Virus record (IMG/VR): IMGVR_UViG_3300050821_004433
Span: 1 to 22,552 of that record
Length of the DNA stretch: 22,552 bases
From: a virus
Direction: 5' to 3' (one strand)
Both the position numbers and the translations under genes were made by a program. The first letter of the stretch is position 1, and the number at the start of each line of letters is the position of its first letter. Below the pieces are notes generated by a model. The model searched no databases. It saw only the letters and a program-made list of their open reading frames with translations, and was not told the DNA's origin. Of the stretch, positions 947 to 15,096 are shown piece after piece.

Positions 947-1569
947 GCGACTATTCCGACTTTTGTGCGCAGATCGCGGAATGGTGCAACCGCCAGGATT
1001 GGTCGCAGAATCTCGTTGGCTCGTTCGTTCTTATGGCCAATCAAAAGTTCAACCAGGAACTCCGAATTTCGCGGATGATCGGGATGGCGGAAAACACCGT
1101 TACTTGCCGCTGTTCGACGTTGCCCGACGATTGGCTGGAGAGCGATCTGGTCTTGATGGCGAGCGAGCAAGTGCCAGGCGGCTGGAAGCCGATTCGCTAC
1201 AAAGCGAGGGACGAATTCTTCAAGCTGCCAGACAAATGGTCGTGCAACCATTACACAGTCGAAGGGCGAACGCTGTTCTTTGGCGGCACGCCGGACGAGA
1301 CGGAAGGGCGCGCGTTTCAGCTCTATTATTTCCAAGAAGTGCCGATCTTTTCGGACACGATACCAAGCTGGATTTATACAAAATACCCGTCGCTCTACCT
1401 CTCCGCGGCGCTGATGCACGCCTATCTGCATGCGATCGGTGAAGAGGGCCAGGCGGCGGGGGCGAAACAACTCACCGAAGACACGATTCAGAAGCTCAAC
1501 AACGAACACAACCTCTCCAAGGCGAGCGGCTCGAGACTCACGCGCACGAGGGTCAGGAGTTTCGGCTGA
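943..1569 (+). CDS. Head-tail adaptor/connector-like phage protein
   Basis: The 208-aa protein starts at GTG 943 within a GTGA overlap. It shows the plan of podo/siphovirus adaptor proteins that sit under the portal ring: an N-terminal helical part (YSDFCAQIAEWCNRQD), a central LPDDWLE segment, a beta-rich middle (YTVEGRTLFFGG), and a C-terminal WIYTKYPSLYLSAALMHAYL helix typical of the family's Pxl-YL-aaL-A signature. The role would be to connect portal and tail and to hold packaged DNA. The tail seems trimmed for a charged end (SRLTRTRVRSFG). The family assignment is from remembered motifs, not from a search. Confidence 0.6.
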   Translation: MSDYSDFCAQIAEWCNRQDWSQNLVGSFVLMANQKFNQELRISRMIGMAENTVTCRCSTLPDDWLESDLVLMASEQVPGGWKPIRYKARDEFFKLPDKWSCNHYTVEGRTLFFGGTPDETEGRAFQLYYFQEVPIFSDTIPSWIYTKYPSLYLSAALMHAYLHAIGEEGQAAGAKQLTEDTIQKLNNEHNLSKASGSRLTRTRVRSFG

Positions 1570-3884
1570 TGAACGATCAGTGGATTCCATCTCCGCCTCA
1601 ACCGCCGCCGACATGGACGCCTAACCCGCTGCCGCCGTCGAACGAATGGAGCGACACGGAGGCTTGCGCCGCGCCGAGCGGGCCTTCGATCGTCGATGGC
1701 ATCGTTATCACCGGCGTGCCGGCGACGGTGAGCTCGCTCTATTGGCAGGTGAGCCTCAACGATGGCTCGAGTCCGCCGAATTTTCAGATCAATCATCTCG
1801 ACGGCAAGGGCGCTGTGCTCGACGCTGCGCTGCAGATCTCTGGCGCTGATCTCTCAGCCACTTTCGCGGGTCCGGTCTACCTGGCGCGCGATCCGGTCGA
1901 GCCGATGGAGGCGGTGACTCTCGAATATCTCGAGGCGCATGGGGCGGGCGTCGAGGAAGCGCCGTCAGATGGTCAGACTTATGGGCGGACTTCAGGAGCT
2001 TGGAACGTAGTTGTTCCGGCCAGCGGTGGCACTTTTTCTGGACCGACCAACCTGGGCGCGGGCGGCGCGGTCACCTCGGGCGCGCTCTTATTCGCCGGAA
2101 ATGCTGTTTGTTCGTTGCCCACGGTTGCTCAATTAGAGATCGGCGGCGGCTCTGCAGGCCAGGTGCCGGCGACCGATGGCAACGGCAATTTGTCCTGGGT
2201 CACGCCGGTTACCGGCGGGCCTTATCTGCCGCTCTCGGGCGGCACAGTCACGGGCAGCTTGACGGTCAACCAGGTGCTCACCGTTCAGGGGAGCAATTCA
2301 CTGGTGCTCAACGCGCCGGTGACTGGCGGCAATCAGCGCGCCATCTTGAGCATGGCCGCCAATGTCACGCGCTGGCAGTTAGCGCTGGGCGACGGAACGG
2401 CTGAAGGGGCAAATAACGCCGGGGCGAATTTCAACTTGTCGGCCTACAGCACGACCGGCGGGTTTCTCGGCAATTGGCTGACCATCGCGCGGGCGGACGG
2501 TTCGACCGTGTTCAACGGGACCGGCATCACTGTCAATGGCGGCCTGGCGGTCAATGGGCTTTTCGCCGTCAACAGCCTCGGCAATTTCTATCTTCCCGGC
2601 GGCTCGGCTGGCCAGGTGCTCACGACCAATGGCTCGGGCCTTTTGTCCTGGACGACGCCTGCGGCTGGCGGATCGACGGTCACCATCAGCGACACGGCGC
2701 CGGCGAGCCCCACCGTAGGGGCGCTGTGGTGGGATTCTGTCGGGGGTCAGATGTACCTCCGTTATCAGGATCCCAATACGATCCAATGGGTTCCGACGAC
2801 CAACGCCGCCAGCCTTCCGCCGCCCGCGTCGACGACGGTATTGGGCTCGGTCAAGGTCGATGGGACGTCGATCAAGGCGGCGGCGGACGGCACGATTTCG
2901 ACCGTGCTTATCCCGATGGGCGACAACAGGCTCATCAACGGCGACATGCGGATCGATCAGCGCAACAACGGCGCGAGCGGCGCGGCGAACAACGTCTACA
3001 CGATTGATCGTTGGTTTTACGGCGCGACACAAGCAAGCAAGGGAAATTGGGCTCGTAATAGTAGCGGGTCTGGTGTGCCGGGGCCTGCCGGGTTTCCCTA
3101 TTGTCTCGGCTTTGCATCGTCGTCGGCTTACGCTTCGCTGGCGACTGATAACTTTTATTTCCAACAACGGATCGAAGCCGACATGATTAGCGATTTCGCT
3201 TGGGGAACGAGCGGAGCGCAGCCGGTCACATTGTCGTTTTGGGTTTATTCCAGCCTGACAGGCACATTTAGCGGCTGTCTAGAAAACGGTGCGGCGAATA
3301 GAGGTTATCCATTCAGCTTTTCCATTCCGGTTGCGAACACATGGACTAGGATCGTCGTCATCATCCCCGGCGATACGGGCGGCACATGGACGTTGAGCGG
3401 CAACGGCGTTGGGCTGTATGCGATCTTCGATTTGGGCAGTGGAGCAAATTTCCGCGCCCCTGCTGGGGCGTGGGCGACCGGCAACTATGTCGGCGCGACC
3501 GGCGCGGTGAGCGTCGTCGCCACCAACGGCGCGACTTTCTATCTGACCGGCGTCAAGTTAGAGATCGGCAGCGTCGCAACGCCCTACAACCGGCAGTCGC
3601 TGGCCAAGTGTTTGGCCGATTGCCAGAGGTATTATCAGGTATTAGCATCAATGCAACTAGGTGGAAACTCGCAAGTAACTGGTCCTATTACAACTGCGGC
3701 GATCCCGCTCTCTCCACAAATGCGCGCACAGCCTACTGTTACAACAAGTAATCTTTCGTATGGTAATGCGTCGGCATTAACTCTTGCTCCTTCTAGTAGT
3801 AATGTTGTTCAAACATTTCTATCAGTGACTGCTGTTGGCGCATGGAACGCAAACTTCAATATGCTTTCTAGCGCGGAGCTTTAA
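1569..3884 (+). CDS. Tail fibre protein 1 with C-terminal carbohydrate-binding-like module
   Basis: The 771-aa protein begins at ATG 1569 in a TGATG overlap. It has a Pro-rich N-terminus (residues 1-35), a virion-attachment-like part, and a repetitive beta-rich shaft with LPLSGGTVTGSLTVNQ. The shaft contains a duplicated segment at about 194-213 and 345-364 (GSAGQV..T.G.G.LSW.TP). A linker (DTAPASPTVGALWWDS) follows. From about 452 it carries the module starting NRLINGDMRIDQ and ending LADCQRYY at about 690, common in phage receptor-binding fibres and sandwich-like in predicted strand content. The last 80 or so residues are a tip encoded by AT-richer DNA. The module is repeated in the next gene. 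The receptor is unknown. Confidence 0.85.
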   Translation: MNDQWIPSPPQPPPTWTPNPLPPSNEWSDTEACAAPSGPSIVDGIVITGVPATVSSLYWQVSLNDGSSPPNFQINHLDGKGAVLDAALQISGADLSATFAGPVYLARDPVEPMEAVTLEYLEAHGAGVEEAPSDGQTYGRTSGAWNVVVPASGGTFSGPTNLGAGGAVTSGALLFAGNAVCSLPTVAQLEIGGGSAGQVPATDGNGNLSWVTPVTGGPYLPLSGGTVTGSLTVNQVLTVQGSNSLVLNAPVTGGNQRAILSMAANVTRWQLALGDGTAEGANNAGANFNLSAYSTTGGFLGNWLTIARADGSTVFNGTGITVNGGLAVNGLFAVNSLGNFYLPGGSAGQVLTTNGSGLLSWTTPAAGGSTVTISDTAPASPTVGALWWDSVGGQMYLRYQDPNTIQWVPTTNAASLPPPASTTVLGSVKVDGTSIKAAADGTISTVLIPMGDNRLINGDMRIDQRNNGASGAANNVYTIDRWFYGATQASKGNWARNSSGSGVPGPAGFPYCLGFASSSAYASLATDNFYFQQRIEADMISDFAWGTSGAQPVTLSFWVYSSLTGTFSGCLENGAANRGYPFSFSIPVANTWTRIVVIIPGDTGGTWTLSGNGVGLYAIFDLGSGANFRAPAGAWATGNYVGATGAVSVVATNGATFYLTGVKLEIGSVATPYNRQSLAKCLADCQRYYQVLASMQLGGNSQVTGPITTAAIPLSPQMRAQPTVTTSNLSYGNASALTLAPSSSNVVQTFLSVTAVGAWNANFNMLSSAEL
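3576..3634 (+). repeat. Direct repeat A1, copy in fibre 1
   Basis: The 59 bases match 4692-4750 with one mismatch (3590 C against 4706 T), including 44 identical bases in a row (3591-3634). They encode ATPYNRQSLAKCLADCQRYY. Neighbouring DNA matches less well, so the identity looks recent or conserved by recombination. Confidence 0.9.
3635..3869 (+). other. Divergent AT-richer receptor-tip segment of fibre 1
   Basis: The 235 bases follow the near-identical repeat and are visibly richer in A/T than the shaft (for example, many AGT, ACT, GTT codons). The counterpart in fibre 2 (4751-4982) is three bases shorter, in the same frame, and only weakly similar in protein (PQMRAQPTVT against SSMRIAPTIT). 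Similarity resumes at 3870. This is the expected layout of a variable receptor-contact tip. Confidence 0.6.
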
Positions 3885-3908: not shown

Positions 3909-4997
3909 ATGATTGACTTCCCCGCCAGCCCCACCGTCGGTCAGCAGTTCACCGCTGCGGGCGTGACTTGGGTTTGGGACGGGACGAAGTGGGCCGCGAG
4001 CGGCCTCTCCATCGCTTACGTGCCGCTGGCCGGGTTCGTCCCGGCGATGAATGACAACAGAATTATCAATGGAGATATGCGTATAGACCAAAGATGGAAC
4101 GGCGCGAGCGGGACGGCGAATGGATATACGGTTGATCGGTGGCAGTATTTAGGGAGCTTGGTGAAGGGAACGTGGCAGCGAGTTCCTACCAACACAGCGG
4201 CGTTTGGCTTTCTTTATTGCCTCAGTTTCATATCGTCCTCGGCATATGCGTCTATACCAGCCGACTATTTTGTATTTACGCAATTTATTGAAGCCGACAT
4301 GGTCGGTGATTTCGCTTGGGGAACGGCAAATGCGCAGCCAGTTACACTTTCGTTCTGGGTTAATTGTTCACTGGCGGGAACTTTCAGCGGCGCAATTCGC
4401 AACGCTGCCGCCACACGTTCATACCCTTTCATATATTCGGTTTCGGCCGCGAACACCTGGACGAAAATTACCATTACTATTCCCGGCGACGCTACTGGGA
4501 CATGGGTCTCTAGCGGCAACGCCGCTTCGGTTCATGCGATCTTCGATCTTGGATCTGGTTCGACTTCTCGCGGACCCTCTGGCGCATGGGCGTCGGCAAA
4601 TTATTTGGGCGCGATCGGCGCGCAGAGCATCGTCGCCGTCAACGCCGCGACCTTCTATGTGACCGGCGTCAAGCTCGAGATTGGCTCTGTGGCAACGCCC
4701 TACAATCGGCAGTCGCTGGCCAAGTGTTTGGCCGATTGCCAGAGGTATTACAGGAACGACATAGCAGTTTACGCTAATGCATATGCATTAGCCGGTAATA
4801 ATGTTGGTTCAACTGTCTCATACTCATCGATGCGGATTGCACCTACAATTACGTTTTCCGGGGCTTCTTATGCTAATGCAAGCGGCGTAGCAGTTGGCTA
4901 TGCTCCAACAACTGGTAGTGTAGGTATTATAGCCACAGCAACAGCAACTGGAACCGCGAGCTATGCTGCTACAGTGGTTATGAGCGCGGAGCTTTGA
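3909..4997 (+). CDS. Tail fibre protein 2, short paralogue of the fibre 1 C-terminus
   Basis: The 362-aa protein lacks a shaft. Residues 1-45 are a short linker (FPASPTVGQQF...WVWDGTKWAA) of the type found in phage tail proteins. Residues 48-281 repeat the module of fibre 1 (NDNRIINGDMRIDQ to LADCQRYY), and residues 282-362 form a divergent tip ending SAEL like fibre 1. Without an attachment domain it may assemble onto fibre 1 or the collar fibre, or act as an alternative adhesin. Its start follows the TGA of the micro-ORF by one base. Conserved positions across the two modules suggest both are functional rather than one being decayed. Confidence 0.82.
   Translation: MIDFPASPTVGQQFTAAGVTWVWDGTKWAASGLSIAYVPLAGFVPAMNDNRIINGDMRIDQRWNGASGTANGYTVDRWQYLGSLVKGTWQRVPTNTAAFGFLYCLSFISSSAYASIPADYFVFTQFIEADMVGDFAWGTANAQPVTLSFWVNCSLAGTFSGAIRNAAATRSYPFIYSVSAANTWTKITITIPGDATGTWVSSGNAASVHAIFDLGSGSTSRGPSGAWASANYLGAIGAQSIVAVNAATFYVTGVKLEIGSVATPYNRQSLAKCLADCQRYYRNDIAVYANAYALAGNNVGSTVSYSSMRIAPTITFSGASYANASGVAVGYAPTTGSVGIIATATATGTASYAATVVMSAEL
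4692..4750 (+). repeat. Direct repeat A2, copy in fibre 2
   Basis: This is the partner of 3576-3634, with 58 of 59 bases identical and an offset of 1116 bases. It marks the boundary between the conserved module and the variable tip of fibre 2. Confidence 0.9.
4751..4982 (+). other. Divergent AT-richer receptor-tip segment of fibre 2
   Basis: The 232 bases encode an Ala/Gly/Ser/Thr-rich tip (GIIATATATGTASYAATVV). They are A/T-richer than the preceding module and lie between repeats A2 and B2. This is equivalent in place and frame to 3635-3869 of fibre 1. Confidence 0.6.
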
Positions 4998-8362: not shown

Positions 8363-9634
8363 ATGGGCGGACAGACCGGCACGCAGCAAACCCAGACCCA
8401 GCAAACGACGCAACTGCCGCCCTGGATCAACGACGCTGCACAGCAAAATTACGCTACTGCGCAGCAAATCGCTACGACTCCGTTGCAGCAATATGCAGGG
8501 CAGATGACGCCGGATGTCTCCCAGCAACTGCAGCAAAGCTGGAACACGGCGGCGACGGCGGGCAACGCTGGGGTTCCGCAACTGAATGCTTCGACGGCAG
8601 GGTTCGTCGGCGCGCTCGGTCAGACGCCCTCTTCGATCCTGCCGAAGACTCTCGCCGGGACCGATCTTTCGCCGTACATGAACCCCTACACGCAAAACGT
8701 GATCAACGCGACGCTGCCGATCATGCAGCAACAGCTGGGGCAGACACTCGCCACCAACGCCGGCAACGCGGTCAACCAGGGCGCATTCGGGGGCTCAAGA
8801 TTCGGCGTCCAGCAAGGCGTGGCCCAGGCTCAGGGAGCCCTTGGCGAGACGCAAATGGCCGAGCAACTCAACCAGGCGAACTACGGCCAGGCGGTGCAGG
8901 GCGCGCAATACGATATCGGCAACAATCTGACCGCGCAGACCGCCAACCAGGCGGCGCAGCAAGCGAAGATCAATTCCGACATCGCCGCCTCGAGCGGCCT
9001 CAACGCGGCGGCGCAGACCGCGGGCCAGCAAGCCCAGTCTGCCTTCAACATGCAGAACACCGCCGGCACGCAGCAAATGTCGACGGCGCAGGACCAGATC
9101 AACGCGCAGATGCAGAAGTTCCAGCAAGCCTGGGGCTATCCGACCCAGGAGCTCGGCGTCCTGCAGAGCGCGCTCGGCATGACCCCTTATGGACAATCCA
9201 CAACTGGCGCAAGCAATACACAGACCTATACGCCCACCGACTGGGCGGCGCTCGCCGGCGCCGGGCTTGGCGCGGCCGGCTCGATCTTCAAAGGCTTTGG
9301 TCCCTCGGACAAGCGGCTAAAGAAGAATCTTAAGCGCGTCGGCACGCACGGACCGACCGGCGTTCCGGTCTACGATTTTAACTGGAAAGGTCAGCCGCCA
9401 GGGGCTCCGAAGACCCGCGGCCCGATGGCGCAGGATGTTGAGAAAGTTCTGCCTGGCGCGATTGCGCACGACGCAACCGGCGTTAAGCACGTCCATCCAG
9501 CGGTGCTCGGCGCGCTCTCCCGGCCGACGCCGGTGGGCCATGCGGGCGCGCTACGGACGCTCTCGCCGCTCTTGCACACTCAGCATCGACGTCGCGTGCG
9601 GCCGCCGCAACTGAGGGGCGCGCTCAGTGGCTGA
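8363..9634 (+). CDS. Gln-rich virion protein with S74 intramolecular chaperone domain
   Basis: The 423-aa protein has a Gln/Ala/Asn-rich body (residues 1-300) with DLSPYMNPYTQNVINAT and GAFGGSRFGVQQG, a pairing I recall from structural proteins of podoviruses. Residues 315 to ~390 read SDKRLKKNLKRVG, VYDFNW, GPMAQDVEKVLPGAI, GVKHVHPAVLGAL, the Peptidase_S74 chaperone signature. In endosialidases this domain trimerises the protein and cuts itself off just before the Ser of SDxRLK, here Ser315. The C-terminal ~35 residues are Arg/Pro-rich and not typical of S74. ATG 8363 has AAGGA upstream. It probably assembles as a trimer in the tail or ejection apparatus. Confidence 0.75.
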   Translation: MGGQTGTQQTQTQQTTQLPPWINDAAQQNYATAQQIATTPLQQYAGQMTPDVSQQLQQSWNTAATAGNAGVPQLNASTAGFVGALGQTPSSILPKTLAGTDLSPYMNPYTQNVINATLPIMQQQLGQTLATNAGNAVNQGAFGGSRFGVQQGVAQAQGALGETQMAEQLNQANYGQAVQGAQYDIGNNLTAQTANQAAQQAKINSDIAASSGLNAAAQTAGQQAQSAFNMQNTAGTQQMSTAQDQINAQMQKFQQAWGYPTQELGVLQSALGMTPYGQSTTGASNTQTYTPTDWAALAGAGLGAAGSIFKGFGPSDKRLKKNLKRVGTHGPTGVPVYDFNWKGQPPGAPKTRGPMAQDVEKVLPGAIAHDATGVKHVHPAVLGALSRPTPVGHAGALRTLSPLLHTQHRRRVRPPQLRGALSG

Positions 9635-11129
9635 CGAGGACCGCCCACAATACCAGCATGGCTTGGGCACGATTGGCGGCCAGACGTTCCACTGGGGCTC
9701 GGGCGAGCCTGGGCGCTATTGGTCGATTCCCTACGGCGATTATCCCGTTACTCCCAACGCGCCGACAGGCGCCTGGGCGCAAGGGGCTGGGGCGATCCCG
9801 ATCGCCAATAACGTCATTCCCGATCCGCTGCTGGGCCGGAATCGCATCGGCATCATGATCCATTCGGGATCGGCTCAGAGCCTCGATCAGCTTTACACGG
9901 AGGGCTGTTTCAAGGTTGCGCCGTCCGAATGGCCAGGCGTCCGCTCGGAGATCCTTTCGGAGGCGAAGAGCGGCCCGCTCTATCTGCATGTCGCGCCTGG
10001 CGGCGTGGCGGCGTTCACGAACACGCCGACGTTTTCGAAAGCCAGCAGCGAAACGCCGGCCGCGAACGCCAACGCGGTTGCGAATACGACCGCCCATACC
10101 GTTAGCCAGACGACGGTCAACGCCGCCAATGCGCCGATCGCCGGCGCGCTCGCTAACCAGGGGCCGGAGAGCGTCGGTTCAAATTCGGCTTACAGCTTCA
10201 CGCTGCCGAAAAACGCGCCGATGGGCATGGGGAACAATAATCCCTTGAACATCAAATATTACCAAGGCGCGGAGAAGGATTATCCCGGCATGACCGGCCC
10301 CTCGTCGAACACCGACCAGGGCGATTCGCAAATGACCTTTGCTTCGCCGGAAGCAGGCTGGAATGCGGCATACAATCTCCTCAATAAGAAATACACGAAC
10401 GGCAAGACAACGCCGAATCAGATCATCGCCGGCCAAGGCGGTTGGACGCCTGGCAATACGCAAGCTGCGGCGAATGTAGCGAAATCCGCCGGCATCGGGC
10501 CCGACGACGACATCGGCTTCTCGGATCCGGCGAAAGCGCAGAAGTTCATGCGTGCTTTGGTGACGCAGGAGCAAGGCGGAGCCGCCTCCGCTTATCCGGA
10601 CGAGATGATCGCCGCCTCCATTGGCGGCAATGCGCCGGCGACGACGGGTACAAGCGGTACAGCGGTCGCTTCGACGCCCGCGGCCGCGCCGACAACGCCC
10701 GAATCCTGGTGGGGTAAGCTATTCGACAAACCCGCCGATGGCGGCGCCAACGCCCAATCGCCTTTTCAACAGGCGACGAGCGCTTTTCTCAACGCGCCGC
10801 AAAAAGAGCAAGCGGCCGAACGAGCCCAGGCGCCGCAAGACGGCTCGCCGGCGAGCGAGCAAGCTTCGCAGCAGCGCTTCGCTCCGGGCGCGCGCAACGT
10901 TTCGCCTGGCCTGGCCAGCGTGCCTCAGACTTACGGCACCACGATCAACGCCGCTTCGCGGCCGCTGACCTGGACCGACGCCCCTCCAGGAGCCCCAAAA
11001 CTGCCTCCTGCCGGCCTTCAGGGCCCGATGTACGCTCAGACACCCGGAACATCGATCAACTCAGTGCAGCCCCTGCCGCAAGGGCTGGGATACGGCGTCG
11101 ACCCGAACATAGGCTACGGCTATGGCTGA
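9627..11129 (+). CDS. Virion peptidoglycan-active protein: LDT-like plus hydrolase domain
   Basis: The 500-aa protein starts at GTG 9627 (overlap GTGGCTGA; GAGGGG upstream). Residues ~10-130 contain IPYGDYP, IMIHSGSAQS and LYTEGCFKV. His79 and Cys94 are spaced as in L,D-transpeptidase (YkuD/DUF2778-type) active sites, with T-E-G-C in place of S-H/F-G-C. Residues ~199-320 contain GMGNNNPLNIKYYQG, FASPEAGWNAAYNLL and NVAKSAGIGPDDDI, as in the P5-like structural lytic transglycosylases of phages. The rest is low-complexity Ala/Pro/Gln. It would open the cell wall during DNA entry. Catalytic competence of either domain is not proven by sequence alone. Confidence 0.68.
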   Translation: MADEDRPQYQHGLGTIGGQTFHWGSGEPGRYWSIPYGDYPVTPNAPTGAWAQGAGAIPIANNVIPDPLLGRNRIGIMIHSGSAQSLDQLYTEGCFKVAPSEWPGVRSEILSEAKSGPLYLHVAPGGVAAFTNTPTFSKASSETPAANANAVANTTAHTVSQTTVNAANAPIAGALANQGPESVGSNSAYSFTLPKNAPMGMGNNNPLNIKYYQGAEKDYPGMTGPSSNTDQGDSQMTFASPEAGWNAAYNLLNKKYTNGKTTPNQIIAGQGGWTPGNTQAAANVAKSAGIGPDDDIGFSDPAKAQKFMRALVTQEQGGAASAYPDEMIAASIGGNAPATTGTSGTAVASTPAAAPTTPESWWGKLFDKPADGGANAQSPFQQATSAFLNAPQKEQAAERAQAPQDGSPASEQASQQRFAPGARNVSPGLASVPQTYGTTINAASRPLTWTDAPPGAPKLPPAGLQGPMYAQTPGTSINSVQPLPQGLGYGVDPNIGYGYG

Positions 11130-11874
11130 CAATAGCGCCAACATTTACCCCTACCCATTGCAATTTGACCCTTCGCAATGGTCGAATAAATACAGTTCCT
11201 TCGCGGGCCAGAAGCTGCCCAGCCTGGCGGCTTACGCCGGCGTGCCGACCGACGCGCTCGGCAATCCGATCGCCAGCTATCAAGCGATTCAGGCTCAGCA
11301 AGCCGCGGCGCAACCGGCGGCGCCCGCCATGGCGCCGTCGACGACGCTGAACTCGAATCCATTCGCCGGCGTTCAAATCCCGCAAGGCCAAAATGCGGCG
11401 CCGTATGAGCCGCGTGGCGGCTTGAGCACCGCCCAATGGCAAGCGCTGACGCCGGCTCAAAGAGGCACAGCGCAGAGCGCGCTAGACACAGTTCAAGCCG
11501 GCGTAGCGGCGACGCGGCCTGACAGCTTCGTCGCCTCCTCCAATAATCCGAGCGGCGGCGGCCCCGGAGCGGGCGCGTACCTCCAGGGCTTAGGAGCCAA
11601 CGCTTTTAACCAAATGGCTAATCAGCCCGCGGCGCCCGCGGCGTCGGCCGCGCCGGCTGGCCCCGACATGAACCAGGCCTATCTCGCTGCGCTTTCCAAC
11701 CCAGGCAAAGTCCAGACGCCTGGCGCAACCGTGCCGCAAGCGCCTCTGCCCTCCGGCCAATCCGGCGTCCTGCAGCAGTTCCTCTCCAATTGGCAGAACC
11801 AAGGCTCGCCAACCACAGGGGCCGGAAATTACAATAATCAGGGGTTCTTCAACGCCCTGAAGGGAGGCATGTGA
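11122..11874 (+). CDS. Low-complexity Ala/Pro/Gln-rich virion protein
   Basis: The 250-aa product overlaps the previous gene by eight bases (ATGGCTGA). It is dominated by Ala, Pro, Gln and Asn, with tracts such as QAQQAAAQPAAPAMAP and a short amphipathic C-terminus (GVLQQFLSNWQNQ). No enzyme motif or membrane segment is visible. Its place between the cell-wall-active protein and the large helical proteins suggests a minor or ejected virion component. I do not recognise a family. Confidence 0.62.
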   Translation: MADNSANIYPYPLQFDPSQWSNKYSSFAGQKLPSLAAYAGVPTDALGNPIASYQAIQAQQAAAQPAAPAMAPSTTLNSNPFAGVQIPQGQNAAPYEPRGGLSTAQWQALTPAQRGTAQSALDTVQAGVAATRPDSFVASSNNPSGGGPGAGAYLQGLGANAFNQMANQPAAPAASAAPAGPDMNQAYLAALSNPGKVQTPGATVPQAPLPSGQSGVLQQFLSNWQNQGSPTTGAGNYNNQGFFNALKGGM

Positions 11875-12230
11875 TGCCGACTCCAGCCGATCTTCTCTCC
11901 GAGAAAATCGACGAGGATCCCGACGATCAATTGCGCATGCAACTCGATCAGGGTCAGGGCAATAACCTCGCCGGCGCCCCACAGACGCCTCCCCAAGCCG
12001 GCATGCCGCCGCCAGGCGGAGTGATGCCAGGCGGGGCGCCGCCGTCGCCCAACGTGCCAGGACCGCTCGCCGCGCTGGCGAAAAAGACGCCGACGACCAA
12101 GCCGCATATCCGGCTCAAATCGAAACCGGCCGAGCCGCCGCGAAAGAAGCTCAAGGTCCGTCTGAAACCGCGTGCGGGCAAGCCATCGATTTCACCGCTG
12201 CAGGGGTTCCTGAACAGCCTAGGAAGCTAA
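11874..12230 (+). CDS. Pro-rich, C-terminally basic small virion-region protein
   Basis: The 118-aa product has an acidic N-terminus (LLSEKIDEDPDDQL), a Pro/Gly middle, and a strongly basic tail with two similar stretches (IRLKSKPAEPPRKKLKVRLK), so the tail may bind DNA. ATG 11874 sits six bases after AGGGAGG (11861-11867) in a TGATG junction; GTG 11871 is in frame but too close to the ribosome site. The function is unknown. Confidence 0.62.
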   Translation: MPTPADLLSEKIDEDPDDQLRMQLDQGQGNNLAGAPQTPPQAGMPPPGGVMPGGAPPSPNVPGPLAALAKKTPTTKPHIRLKSKPAEPPRKKLKVRLKPRAGKPSISPLQGFLNSLGS

Positions 12231-12231
12231 C

Positions 12232-13848
12232 ATGGCCGGCATTGGCGATCCTCTGTTCAATCTGTTCCAGCCTGATCCCGAACAGGCGATCGCGGACTGG
12301 AGCAACGAACAACAAAGGAAAAACCGCGCCGCTATTGGGCTCGACGCCAACGGCAATCCGTTGCCCGCCGCAGCCACCGCACCCGCGGTGCCGGCCGCCG
12401 ATGGATCCGCGCCGCTGACTCCGGGTGACCACGCCGCCATTCAGGCTCAAGTCTCAGGCACAATGCAACCTGGGCAGGAGCCAAACGCGACCAAGACTCC
12501 GCAAAGCCTCGGCGCGCTTTTGATGAATCTGCAGCAACGCCAGGAGGCCGATCAGGGCTTGAACCAGGCGCTCGGCATGGGCTTCGCCGCCTTCGCCCAG
12601 CCGCGCGATCGCGAAATGGTTTCGCGAATGTTTAATCAGCAACAGCCGGATGTGAACCAGATCGGCATGACGCAAATGAACCTGGCCGGCCAGCAACAGG
12701 GCCAGGATCGCATGAACGCGCTCGGCGCATTGGTTCGCGATCCGGTGCGAGGCAAAGCCATCGCGGATAGCCTCAACATCCCGCAAGCCGACCTCATCGC
12801 CCGCTACGAGGCTGATCCGCAGGGCGTCGGCCAGATGATTCAGAATTTCCGTCAGCCTACCGACCCGCTCAAAAACATCATGCAACTTCCCACGGTGGGC
12901 GGCAGCGCGGCAGCGGGGCCAGCGGGTCCAAGCGGTCCAAAAGGAAGCCCAGCCAATGGCACGCCGCTCAGCGATATCATTTCCGCCGTCACCAGCAGCG
13001 TCGCCGGTCCTACTAGCGAAGCAATGCTTTCGGCGCAGAACGCCTGGCGCGCAGCGCACAAAGGCCAGCCGGATTCGGCTATGCCCTGGCAAGCCAACAA
13101 CCTGCAATCGTTTGGGCAATATGCGATCAATGAAAAGGGCAAGGAAGACGATCGCGCGTCGGCGTCGGCAGCGCTCGTCGATAATAACGAAACCGCTCAG
13201 AGAATGCAGACCGACCTCGAGACGTTGAAAGATTCGCCTGGCTTAAAGAGCATTCTCACTACGCCAGCCAAGCGAGCGATTGCTCAGACAGCGATGGAGG
13301 ACAAAGGCGCAACCGACGTCCCGACTATCATGGCGAAATATGTCGGATTAAACAGCCAAGAAGCAGACGCGATCGCAGTTCTAAAAAGAATCGGCGGCGC
13401 GACGACCGAAACCGCCATGAAGGGCATGGCTGGCACCGGCACGCGCGTCACGCAAGCGGAAGTTGGGCCGCTGAAAGACGCAATCGCCACGACGCAGAAC
13501 CTGAACCAAAGCTACGATTCTTACATTCACGGGGCGCTTGGCAGCGCGATCACGCGGGCGAAGAAAACCATCGCGACAAATTTCGGCGCGACCGGCAACG
13601 TTAAGAATATGGATCCGCAATATGCGCCGTGGCTGGACGACAACTTCAAGCCAGGCGGCGAGCTCTACAAGGAAGGCAGCGGCGCAGAGGCGCTTCCGGC
13701 GGCCAAGCCGATTCCGCCGGATATGTTGGCTCAGGTGAAGCAGGAAGCTTCGAACTATTCCGTTGGAAAAGACGACCTTCTCGACAATCTGCAGCAAGCT
13801 GGATTTGATACAAAAAGGCTGCGTCACACGCCGGTTTCAGGATGGTGA
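12232..13848 (+). CDS. Large helical virion protein, ejection-protein candidate
   Basis: The 538-aa protein is mostly predicted alpha-helical and Gln/Ala-rich. Residues 1-60 carry a DPLFNLFQPDPEQAI start and a low-complexity linker; about 95-220 hold long helices (LMNLQQRQEADQGLNQAL). A Gly/Ala/Pro linker at ~225-245 precedes a second helical half. Its size, helicity and location at the end of the late operon match ejection or internal virion proteins of podoviruses, which pass into the cell before the DNA. The ATG follows a TAA by one base with AGGAAG upstream. No catalytic motif was found. Confidence 0.65.
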   Translation: MAGIGDPLFNLFQPDPEQAIADWSNEQQRKNRAAIGLDANGNPLPAAATAPAVPAADGSAPLTPGDHAAIQAQVSGTMQPGQEPNATKTPQSLGALLMNLQQRQEADQGLNQALGMGFAAFAQPRDREMVSRMFNQQQPDVNQIGMTQMNLAGQQQGQDRMNALGALVRDPVRGKAIADSLNIPQADLIARYEADPQGVGQMIQNFRQPTDPLKNIMQLPTVGGSAAAGPAGPSGPKGSPANGTPLSDIISAVTSSVAGPTSEAMLSAQNAWRAAHKGQPDSAMPWQANNLQSFGQYAINEKGKEDDRASASAALVDNNETAQRMQTDLETLKDSPGLKSILTTPAKRAIAQTAMEDKGATDVPTIMAKYVGLNSQEADAIAVLKRIGGATTETAMKGMAGTGTRVTQAEVGPLKDAIATTQNLNQSYDSYIHGALGSAITRAKKTIATNFGATGNVKNMDPQYAPWLDDNFKPGGELYKEGSGAEALPAAKPIPPDMLAQVKQEASNYSVGKDDLLDNLQQAGFDTKRLRHTPVSGW

Positions 13849-13851
13849 TCG

Positions 13852-15096
13852 ATGGCTGACAGAATCCAAGGTCTGCCTGGCTATCATCGCGCGCAAGACG
13901 ATCTGCCTCCGGTGCAGCCGCAAACCGTCTTTCCAAAGTCGCAGGGGCAACCGACCGCGCCGGATTCGACGCCGGCGCCCATTCCTGGCTTGCCAGGGTA
14001 TAAACGGGCGACGCCGGATGCGACATCTTCAACTGCCGCGCCGGCAAGCCAGAACAGCCTCCTGTACGACATGTTTCATCCGACCGACGCGGATCTCAGT
14101 CGGCCTCAGACCTGGCATGATTGGCTAACCAAGACCTATAGCCCCTCGGCAAGTCAGGTGGGCTCCGCGGCGCTTGATGACGTCTCATTCGGCACTGCGG
14201 ATTATCTGCAGTCTAGGCTGACCGGCGAGAATGTCGGCAATATTCGGGCTCGCACAGCCGATGCTCAGGCGGCGCTTGGACCGATGGGTCCGGTCGTCAA
14301 TGCACTCACCTACGCGATTCCCGGCGGCGGCGAGGCAAAGCTCGCTTTCACGCCTGGCAAGTATCTCGGCAAGGCGGCGCAAGCGGCGGCGCCCTACATC
14401 GGGCGCTATGGCGCGGCGGCCGCGGAGGGCGGCACGGCGGCCGCGGCAAGTTCGATCGGACATCAGGTAGGAGATCCCAATGGTATCGACGCCTTAAAGG
14501 TCGCTAAGGACACGGGGTTTGGCGTAGCCGGCGGCGCGTTGGCTCAGAGCGTTGGTGACGCTGCGGCGGCGACTGGGCGCCCGATAGTGGATTTGATAAC
14601 CGGCAAAGATGGTCGCAGTAGCGAAGCCTGGAACTGGCGCACGCGCGCAGCGTCAGGCGATCCGACTCTTCCTTCCGACGTTGCAAATCAACAAGTCTTT
14701 CGCGCATCCAACGATCCAGCTCAGCCCGCGCTCGCTAATCTTCAGACCGCGCTTAGCCAGTCGACCGATCCCGGCGCGGGATTCAATGCTGTAGCGAGTG
14801 CGACAGGGCTGGCAACAGGCGCAGCCGGGATGGACAAGGGGATGGATTGGGTATCGGCGCTTGTGCCTGGCGGCGTGGCCGGAGCAGCAACTAAATATAT
14901 GGGTGAGCCGCTTGCACGCGGGATCAACACCATCGATCGCAACATCAATGTTGGACAGGCTCTCGATCAGACTTATCCAGCGCTGTATCCGAATGCGTCG
15001 ACGACTGATACGTCGGGTTGGGCCAATGCGCTCCGCCAAGGCTGGATCGGCGGCCAGCGCTCAACGGATCAGGCTGGAGACGCTCAGTGGTGGTGA
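13852..15096 (+). CDS. Ala/Gly-rich virion protein, ejection-protein candidate
   Basis: The 414-aa protein opens with a duplicated motif, IQGLPGYHRA (residues 5-14) and IPGLPGYKRA (44-53), in a Pro-rich leader. From ~120 on there are long small-residue helices (YGAAAAEGGTAAAASSIG, GVAGGALAQSVGDAAAA). Such glycine-zipper-like helices could insert into membranes, as expected of ejection proteins forming a trans-envelope channel. The ATG has AGGATGG upstream. The gene ends at 15096, overlapping the 3' end of a convergent gene by 13 bases. Confidence 0.65.
   Translation: MADRIQGLPGYHRAQDDLPPVQPQTVFPKSQGQPTAPDSTPAPIPGLPGYKRATPDATSSTAAPASQNSLLYDMFHPTDADLSRPQTWHDWLTKTYSPSASQVGSAALDDVSFGTADYLQSRLTGENVGNIRARTADAQAALGPMGPVVNALTYAIPGGGEAKLAFTPGKYLGKAAQAAAPYIGRYGAAAAEGGTAAAASSIGHQVGDPNGIDALKVAKDTGFGVAGGALAQSVGDAAAATGRPIVDLITGKDGRSSEAWNWRTRAASGDPTLPSDVANQQVFRASNDPAQPALANLQTALSQSTDPGAGFNAVASATGLATGAAGMDKGMDWVSALVPGGVAGAATKYMGEPLARGINTIDRNINVGQALDQTYPALYPNASTTDTSGWANALRQGWIGGQRSTDQAGDAQWW

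What the first reader, a model, noticed from the sequence alone, without database searches (positions are those of the whole stretch)
9627..10590. L,D-transpeptidase-like motif fused to a virion lytic transglycosylase-like domain
H79...TEGC94 resembles the YkuD/DUF2778 active site. Placed ahead of a P5-like hydrolase in one virion protein, it would join two different wall activities: one on peptide crosslinks, one on glycan. Alternatively the first domain caps or anchors the protein to the wall.
Basis: partly seen in the sequence, partly recalled or inferred. Interest (0 to 1): 0.55.

Follow-up and report, generated by a model that had tools for sequence, protein, structure and literature searches.

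The report
Cysteine wall-peptide enzyme in phage injector
A phage carries, in a protein probably injected at the start of infection, a cysteine enzyme-like domain resembling bacterial L,D-transpeptidases in front of a sugar-chain-cutting domain, which suggests that it attacks both the peptide and the sugar parts of the host cell wall on the way in.

Summary
ORF 9627-11129 (500 aa) has H79 and T-E-G-C94 near its N-terminus and an Enc34/P5-type glycosidase domain behind it. In 24 aligned members the only invariant residues besides Gly, Pro and one Leu are H79 and C94. In all 37 proteins found, the equivalent of C94 is the sole cysteine. Eight close relatives keep the N-domain (83-89% identical), but in 6 of 8 the domain behind it is of another type. 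Distant relatives are largely tape-measure-like proteins. Sinorhizobium phage phiM5 holds, in the same gene slot, an 'exolysin' annotated as found in the particle, without the N-domain. Arg two residues after Cys, found in many L,D-transpeptidases, is absent (0 of 37), as in the hydrolase DpaA. Best reading: an entry-side cysteine hydrolase of meso-DAP stems or protein tethers, paired with a glycan cutter. Activity is untested, Pfam matches stay below cut-off, profile comparison was not significant, and the H79-C94 distance could not be measured. New variant of a known kind.

The parts
9627..11129 (+). Whole gene: 500-aa protein (GTG start, overlaps upstream ORF by 8 nt)
9627..10025 (+). N-terminal L,D-transpeptidase-like (YkuD-fold) domain, residues 1-133, modelled core 9-131
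   Evidence: AlphaFold2 with 31-row alignment, 11 of 13 ten-residue blocks at pLDDT 84-97; PDB matches; 24-member alignment
9861..9863 (+). H79, predicted catalytic histidine, in modelled strand 77-80
   Evidence: invariant in 24 of 24 aligned; His found at the equivalent place in 37 of 37
9897..9908 (+). T91-E92-G93-C94; C94 is the predicted nucleophile and the only Cys in the protein
10026..10211 (+). Low-complexity linker; pLDDT under 50 over residues 137-185
10212..10622 (+). Enc34/P5-type glycosidase domain (residues 196-332); E315 and W273 align with residues taken as Enc34 Glu131 and Trp79; Tyr95 not kept
   Evidence: residue roles from passages of PMC8943055
10623..11126 (+). Variable tail, residues 333-500
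   Evidence: dN/dS 0.26-0.81 in 5 comparisons
8363..9634 (+). Upstream gene: DNA-ejection-protein-like with an S74 domain; no Cys
   Evidence: phrog_4287 E 8.7e-32, Peptidase_S74 E 2.5e-8, Cys count
11122..15096 (+). Four downstream Cys-free genes (11122, 11871, 12232, 13852), probably further internal virion proteins (inferred)
   Evidence: Cys counts; profile relatives of ORF12232 in phage OH and 5 contigs

Best explanation
The protein is an internal (ejected) virion protein that opens the host wall during genome entry. Its N-terminal domain is a divergent YkuD-fold cysteine enzyme (nucleophile C94, base H79) that most likely hydrolyses bonds at meso-DAP: L,D-carboxypeptidase or L,D-endopeptidase action on stems and 3-3 cross-links, or DpaA-like release of proteins tethered to peptidoglycan. 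The Enc34-type domain behind it cuts the glycan. Shown by computation: the two domains, the fold resemblance, invariance of H79 and C94, the lone cysteine, exchange of the second domain, gene order shared with phiM5. Inferred: presence in the particle, catalysis, and hydrolysis rather than cross-linking.
For: Fold: of the 50 PDB entries listed, ranks 2-47 (46 rows, about 17 different proteins by my count) align to the N-domain and all are L,D-transpeptidases, L,D-carboxypeptidases or DpaA, Z 4.9-6.7. Residues: of 12 invariant columns in 24 members only H79 and C94 are not Gly, Pro or Leu. Lone cysteine: 37 of 37 proteins (26,776 aa) hold exactly one Cys, in the motif; in one member each of 29 clusters, 29 Cys in 20,246 aa against a crude background of 356 in 66,554 aa (0.53%), about 108 expected. 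Constraint: N-domain dN/dS 0.09-0.19 in 8 of 8 comparisons. Exchange: second domain Enc34-type (window, L001, L005), phrog_4067 transglycosylase (L002, E 4.1e-19), Phage_lysozyme2 (L006, E 6.2e-24), phiM5_28-like (L003, L007, L008), phrog_24990 of unknown function (L004, E 2.8e-18). Of 7 other contigs found with the Enc34-type domain, two (L035, L036) have Amidase_2 in front of it. Hydrolysis: no Arg at C+2 in 37 of 37, present in 5 of 5 E. coli LdtA-E and absent in DpaA; PMC10653827 notes this Arg in many LD-transpeptidases and Ala in DpaA; the four YkuD-type matches among the Foldseek rows shown are DpaA, Csd6, Bd1075 and Pgp2, all hydrolases. Location: same gene slot as phiM5_28.
Against: No activity is shown. 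Pfam YkuD, DUF5675 and Tlde1_dom are matched by 5, 2 and 2 of 24 members with best E 0.0067, 0.0091 and 0.022, and the window's own domain matches none; a YkuD search found nothing in 15 records. Profile comparison with E. coli LDTs was not significant, and an unrelated control scored as well or better. The tool calls Z under 8 possibly just a common arrangement. Foldseek E for the N-domain is 0.1-0.57 with query TM about 0.19 and rmsd 7.6-11.1. VIA ties LdtMt1, a transpeptidase, with DpaA at 6.7. The window clade has Lys at C+2, which could stand in for Arg. dN/dS of the second domain (0.05, 0.13), helicase (0.06-0.25) and ORF6065 (0.11-0.25) overlaps that of the N-domain, so the constraint is not special. 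L035/L036 do not show the upstream ejection gene, so the amidase exchange is in architecture only. Cys-free proteins are common here (54 of 164 background ORFs). The H79-C94 distance was not measured and the loop 85-90 is poorly predicted.
Confidence: 0.55

Rival explanations
1. Tlde1-like editing: the domain trims tetrapeptides and swaps the last D-amino acid, so that stems near the entry point cannot be cross-linked again; the effect is on repair, not on opening.
For: 2 of 24 members match Pfam Tlde1_dom weakly (best E 0.022); Tlde1a does both reactions (abstract and passages of PMC9638812).
Against: H-to-C distance 15 or 12 and no His before GC, unlike the printed HXX14-17-(S/T)HGCh motif.
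Confidence: 0.15
2. Cut and re-stitch: an active transpeptidase makes 3-3 cross-links around the hole cut by the glycosidase, keeping the host from bursting during entry.
For: Fold matches include LdtMt1, LdtMt2 and YcbB; the probable host order (inferred) is rich in LDTs.
Against: No Arg at C+2 in 37 of 37; the YkuD-type matches shown by Foldseek are hydrolases; Amidase_2 takes the N-terminal position in L035 and L036.
Confidence: 0.12
3. Wall anchor: C94 is acylated by a stem peptide and stays bound, or the domain binds stems without turnover, fixing the ejected protein to the wall while the second domain cuts.
For: The domain goes with very different partners; in 10 of 13 distant (tape-measure-type) members scanned against Pfam no second wall enzyme was recognised.
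Against: A pure binder need not keep both H79 and C94.
Confidence: 0.12
4. Not an enzyme: a YkuD-derived structural domain, or an unrelated beta fold with a conserved Cys used in assembly.
For: Sub-threshold family matches and non-significant profile comparison.
Against: Invariant His/Cys pair in the order and near the spacing of E. coli LdtA, B, C and E (16, read; 15 or 12 here); no second Cys in the chain for a disulphide.
Confidence: 0.06

Closest known systems
YkuD-family L,D-transpeptidases (Pfam PF03734; LdtMt1/2, E. coli LdtA-E)
   Same: Predicted fold; His then S/T-x-G-C; H to C 15 here (33 of 37) against 16 in E. coli LdtA, B, C, E and 19 in LdtD (read)
   Different: No Arg at C+2; no match over the Pfam cut-off seen; located in probable phage entry proteins
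DpaA (YafK/LdtF), meso-DAP protein amidase, and L,D-carboxypeptidases Csd6, Pgp2, Bd1075
   Same: The YkuD-type matches among the Foldseek rows shown, E 0.1-0.57; DpaA also lacks Arg at C+2
   Different: H to C is 8 in DpaA (read); DpaA's Lys83 and loops were not checked in the model
Tlde1 / DUF2778 (Pfam PF10908)
   Same: L,D-transpeptidase-like fold delivered into another cell; weak match in 2 of 24
   Different: Motif spacing differs; other delivery. Podovirus JC1 has a 136-aa DUF2778 protein (gp41; table passages of PMC9144972), whose length leaves no room for a glycosidase (inference)
Enc34 endolysin catalytic domain (PHA02564; PDB 7q47)
   Same: Second domain: Z 13.1 over 122 residues, profile E 5.5e-5, Glu and Trp kept
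   Different: Tyr95 position is Ala; Enc34's enzyme is an endolysin (exit), this one probably serves entry
phiM5_28 'internal virion protein/exolysin' and Ochrobactrum phage OH p39
   Same: Same slot directly after the S74-type gene; their N-terminal regions match the second domain of L003, L007, L008, E 4.4e-13 to 4.1e-9
   Different: No YkuD-like domain in the sequences read and no Cys; no Pfam match

Membership tests
YkuD family (PF03734) | Score over the Pfam gathering cut-off | tested here: not met
   window: no match; 5 of 24 members match, best E 0.0067; L008 scored 13.6 against 23.4; 0 of 15 records in a six-frame search
YkuD family (PF03734) | L,D-transpeptidase fold | tested here: met
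YkuD family (PF03734) | His plus S/T-x-G-C catalytic motif | tested here: met
   37 of 37
YkuD family (PF03734) | His and Cys adjacent in space | not testable with these tools
   no coordinates returned; order of strands only
YkuD family (PF03734) | Significant sequence-profile similarity to known L,D-transpeptidases | tested here: not met
   hhalign with 5 and 4 E. coli proteins and with DpaA and LdtD alone: E 0.32-0.74, unrelated control 0.17; shallow profiles
Cross-linking L,D-transpeptidases | Arg at C+2 (in many LD-transpeptidases) | tested here: not met
   K 11, G 10, S 8, A 7, T 1 of 37
Tlde1 / DUF2778 (PF10908) | Motif HXX14-17-(S/T)HGCh as printed in PMC9638812 | tested here: not met
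   H to C 15 in 33 and 12 in 4 of 37; no His before GC
Tlde1 / DUF2778 (PF10908) | Score over the Pfam cut-off | tested here: not met
   window: no match at E up to 10; 2 of 24 members match, best E 0.022, their bit scores not shown
Enc34 / PHA02564 glycosidase (second domain) | Fold and catalytic Glu | tested here: met
   Z 13.1; E315 aligns with the Glu of HENG, which I take as Glu131 counted without Met; invariant in 10 of 10
Enc34 / PHA02564 glycosidase (second domain) | Trp79 and Tyr95 equivalents | tested here: inconclusive
   W273 aligns with the Trp, the Tyr position is Ala
Virion-associated peptidoglycan hydrolase | Protein present in the particle | not testable with these tools
   inferred from the slot shared with phiM5_28, noted as detected in the particle proteome

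The most novel reading that the evidence does not exclude
An unnamed phage enzyme family: a Cys-dependent meso-DAP hydrolase kept constant at the entry point of podovirus-like and tape-measure-bearing phages while glycan cutters are exchanged around it, acting on the protein-to-peptidoglycan tethers and 3-3 cross-links typical of Hyphomicrobiales walls, or even stitching the hole shut after entry. That a virion carries its own L,D-type peptide chemistry for entry would make directly testable how phages pass 3-3 cross-linked, protein-tethered walls.
Probability: 0.35. Interest if true: 0.75.

Novelty: new variant of a known kind. Interest (0 to 1): 0.55.

Why it matters
Entry-side wall enzymes of phages are mostly known as glycan cutters, amidases or endopeptidases (recalled). 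A conserved L,D-transpeptidase-like Cys domain in ejected and tape-measure-like proteins would add a different chemistry, aimed at meso-DAP, and would fit hosts whose walls depend on L,D-transpeptidases and covalently tethered outer-membrane proteins (section 13 of PMC12729407, read). The lone cysteine gives a clean handle: one residue to mutate or label.

Tried and rejected
Single-sequence structure prediction failed (pLDDT 34.6). tblastn of the window's N-domain in phages: 140 records, the 40 listed at E 0.07 or worse and under half of the query; none at E 1 for three distant members, L011, L010, L024. Plasmids, with L024's domain: 32 records, the 20 listed at E 5 or worse. Two scans of bacterial genomes found no relative; they need exact short peptide patterns, so this is weak. 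The N-domain profile (14 rows) matched no PDB sequence at E 10. hhalign with E. coli LDTs was not significant, so no membership is claimed from sequence. Chance was considered for the TEGC motif and rejected. Recent transfer was considered for the high N-domain identity: dS is 0.67-0.95 against 0.82-1.60 (ORF8001) and 0.84-1.32 (ORF8363), so slow protein change is mostly constraint, but some exchange is not excluded. Papers searched: YkuD, phage, virion (3 papers); YkuD, phage, transglycosylase (18); LD-transpeptidase, phage tail (6); D-transpeptidase, tape measure (6); YkuD, tape measure (1); transpeptidase, exolysin, phage (5). I saw the listings with starts of abstracts, and passages of five of these papers (PMC8310338, PMC5017753, PMC12729407, PMC3314691, PMC6116114) with two sections of PMC12729407; what I saw does not describe this arrangement, but most were not opened, and the library is open-access only. 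PhaLP lists 10 YkuD phage lytic proteins (a table passage), so YkuD in phages as such is known.
Full report
What is there. The window is an IMG/VR virus record of 22,552 bases. ORF 9627-11129 encodes 500 aa and starts inside the end of the preceding ORF. H79 and T91-E-G-C94 are present. No Pfam or NCBIfam family matches the protein at E up to 10; PHROGs gives phrog_873 'endolysin' for residues 188-405.

The N-domain across relatives. Scans of viral contigs gave 8 close relatives, N-domain 83-89% identical, and more distant ones, 32-51% identical to the window by tblastn: in all 36 distinct contigs besides the window (other locus ids are repeats of these contigs). In the 24-member alignment 12 columns are invariant: nine Gly or Pro, L110, and H79 and C94. 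In all 37 proteins there is exactly one Cys, in the T/S-x-G-C motif; 6 of the 37 ORFs run off a contig end, so some residues are unseen. They form 29 clusters; one member of each gives 29 Cys in 20,246 aa. Other ORFs of 200 aa or more on the same loci, chosen crudely, have 356 Cys in 66,554 aa, and 54 of these 164 ORFs have none. So Cys-free proteins are not rare here, but the single Cys kept always sits at the nucleophile position. In the window the five other genes of the ejection block (8363, 11122, 11871, 12232, 13852; 1,744 aa) have no Cys, the other 11 genes counted have 43 in 3,441 aa. The four such genes counted in each of phiM5, OH and MW202496 have none; of two further genes counted in each of L001, L002, L004, L006 and L008, one (in L006) has a Cys.

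Fold. Prediction from the single sequence failed. With a 31-row alignment mean pLDDT is 76.7; 11 of the 13 ten-residue blocks of the N-domain lie at 84-97, but the loop 85-90 between His and Cys is under 50. VIA-align looked at 284 chains chosen by Foldseek; 110 reached Z 2, 50 entries are listed. The 46 that cover the N-domain (many are LdtMt2; about 17 different proteins) are all L,D-transpeptidases, L,D-carboxypeptidases or DpaA, Z 4.9-6.7; listed rows for the second domain other than Enc34 reach Z 4.7 at most. The tool warns that Z under 8 can be a common arrangement, so the claim rests on the uniformity of the list together with the motif and the weak Pfam matches: YkuD 5 of 24 (best E 0.0067), DUF5675 2 (0.0091), Tlde1_dom 2 (0.022), NETI 1 (0.12), DUF4431 1 (0.23), none for the window itself. 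Foldseek's own superpositions of the N-domain are poor (query TM about 0.19, rmsd 7.6-11.1). Profile comparison with E. coli LDTs was not significant, and an unrelated control alignment scored as well or better. I could not measure the H79-C94 distance.

The second domain. It matches the Enc34 endolysin (PDB 7q47): Foldseek E 5.4e-5, Z 13.1, 2.5 A over 122 residues, profile E 5.5e-5. E315 aligns with the Glu of HENG and W273 with the Trp of RWAP, which I take as Glu131 and Trp79 of the paper counted without Met; the Tyr95 position is Ala. PMC8943055 (abstract and passages) argues for beta-N-acetylglucosaminidase activity. The profile also matches the N-terminus of a 1,295-residue PDB chain named 'Gp29' (9vvp_L, E 1.1e-4; organism not shown), and the viral structure library gives 'Internal virion protein D' of a Providencia phage (E 1.9e-5, aligned range not shown), which fits a place in ejected proteins.

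Exchange of partners. Behind a nearly constant N-domain, 2 of 8 close relatives (L001, L005) keep the Enc34-type domain and 6 have another: phrog_4067 transglycosylase in L002 (E 4.1e-19), Phage_lysozyme2 in L006 (E 6.2e-24), phrog_24990 of unknown function in L004 (E 2.8e-18), and in L003, L007, L008 a type matching phiM5_28 and OH p39 (E 4.4e-13 to 4.1e-9). L002 and L004 match each other weakly (E 1e-5, starting in the linker), so five types is an upper count. Gene order around the gene is largely kept in L001, L002, L004, L006 and L008. Distant members: four were scanned against PHROGs and all four (L018, L019, L024, L031) match tape-measure families; others I assigned by eye. Of 13 distant members scanned against Pfam, L026 has Amidase_2 (E 2.9e-11), L031 SLT (E 6.7e-5), L021 an M15-like stretch below cut-off, and 10 no recognised second wall enzyme; by eye several of these have lysozyme-like or M15-like stretches, which I did not confirm. 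L062 and L071 look like other internal-virion arrangements (by eye). The scan with the Enc34-type domain gave 9 contigs, 2 of them those of L001 and L005; of the 7 others, L035 and L036 have Amidase_2 in front (E 1.4e-10, 1.5e-7), though no ejection gene was found on them by profile; in L040 ejection protein and Enc34-type domain are one polypeptide.

Location in the particle. For ORF6065 the best phage records are Ochrobactrum phage OH (347 bits) and Sinorhizobium phage phiM5 (219); for the ejection gene OH is again best by bits, phiM5 lower. In both, the next gene occupies this slot and has no YkuD-like domain. phiM5_28 is annotated 'internal virion protein/exolysin', 'detected in phage particle proteome'; neither it nor OH p39 matches Pfam. 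In MW202496 the slot holds an SLT protein (E 1.8e-5). So the N-domain looks like an addition in front of an older exolysin (inference). Hyphomicrobiales as host group is inferred from OH and phiM5.

Which reaction. E. coli LdtA-E (5 of 5) have Arg two residues after Cys; DpaA has Ala. PMC10653827 (section 9 and passages) notes this Arg, exposed to the groove, in many transpeptidases, and describes DpaA and the carboxypeptidases as having a single-entrance site. In the phage family the position is Lys, Gly, Ser, Ala or Thr in 37 of 37. The four YkuD-type matches among the Foldseek rows shown are DpaA, Csd6, Bd1075 and Pgp2, with E only 0.1-0.57, and VIA ties DpaA with LdtMt1. I therefore prefer hydrolysis, with moderate confidence. 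Hyphomicrobiales are rich in LDTs and tether outer-membrane proteins to peptidoglycan (section 13 of PMC12729407), so 3-3 cross-links and protein tethers would be natural targets.

Constraint. dN/dS of the N-domain is 0.09-0.19 in 8 comparisons, against 0.14-0.37 in the ejection gene (6) and 0.26-0.81 in the tail (5); but the second domain (0.05, 0.13), helicase (0.06-0.25) and ORF6065 (0.11-0.25) overlap it. In L006 and L008 the N-domain (86%, 83%) is far better kept than the ejection gene (48%, 37%).

Verdict. A real, divergent YkuD-fold-like domain with a probable Cys-His active site, in a probable entry protein, joined to exchangeable glycan-cutting domains. New variant of a known kind; activity unproven.

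Noticed in passing
8363-9634 and 11122-15096: Five ejection-block genes around the YkuD-like gene contain no Cys in 1,744 aa while 11 other window genes counted have 43 in 3,441 aa; Cys avoidance may mark proteins that pass the periplasm.
   Followed up: partly
1569-3884 and 3909-4997: Two adjacent fibre-like genes match the same stretch in relatives (L001, L004): probable tandem duplication of a C-terminal region.
   Followed up: no
L040:4288-7950: Ejection protein and Enc34-type glycosidase domain fused into one 1,221-aa ORF.
   Followed up: no
67-582: The exit endolysin candidate is an M15 peptidase (PF08291, E 2.7e-21), a chemistry different from that of the probable entry protein.
   Followed up: no
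8363-9634: An S74 (endosialidase chaperone) domain lies in an ejection-like protein rather than in an obvious tail fibre; phiM5's counterpart is annotated tailspike/chaperone of endosialidase.
   Followed up: no
L062:5947-8229: A 761-aa protein with the YkuD-like domain at its very N-terminus and a long tail unlike the other architectures.
   Followed up: no
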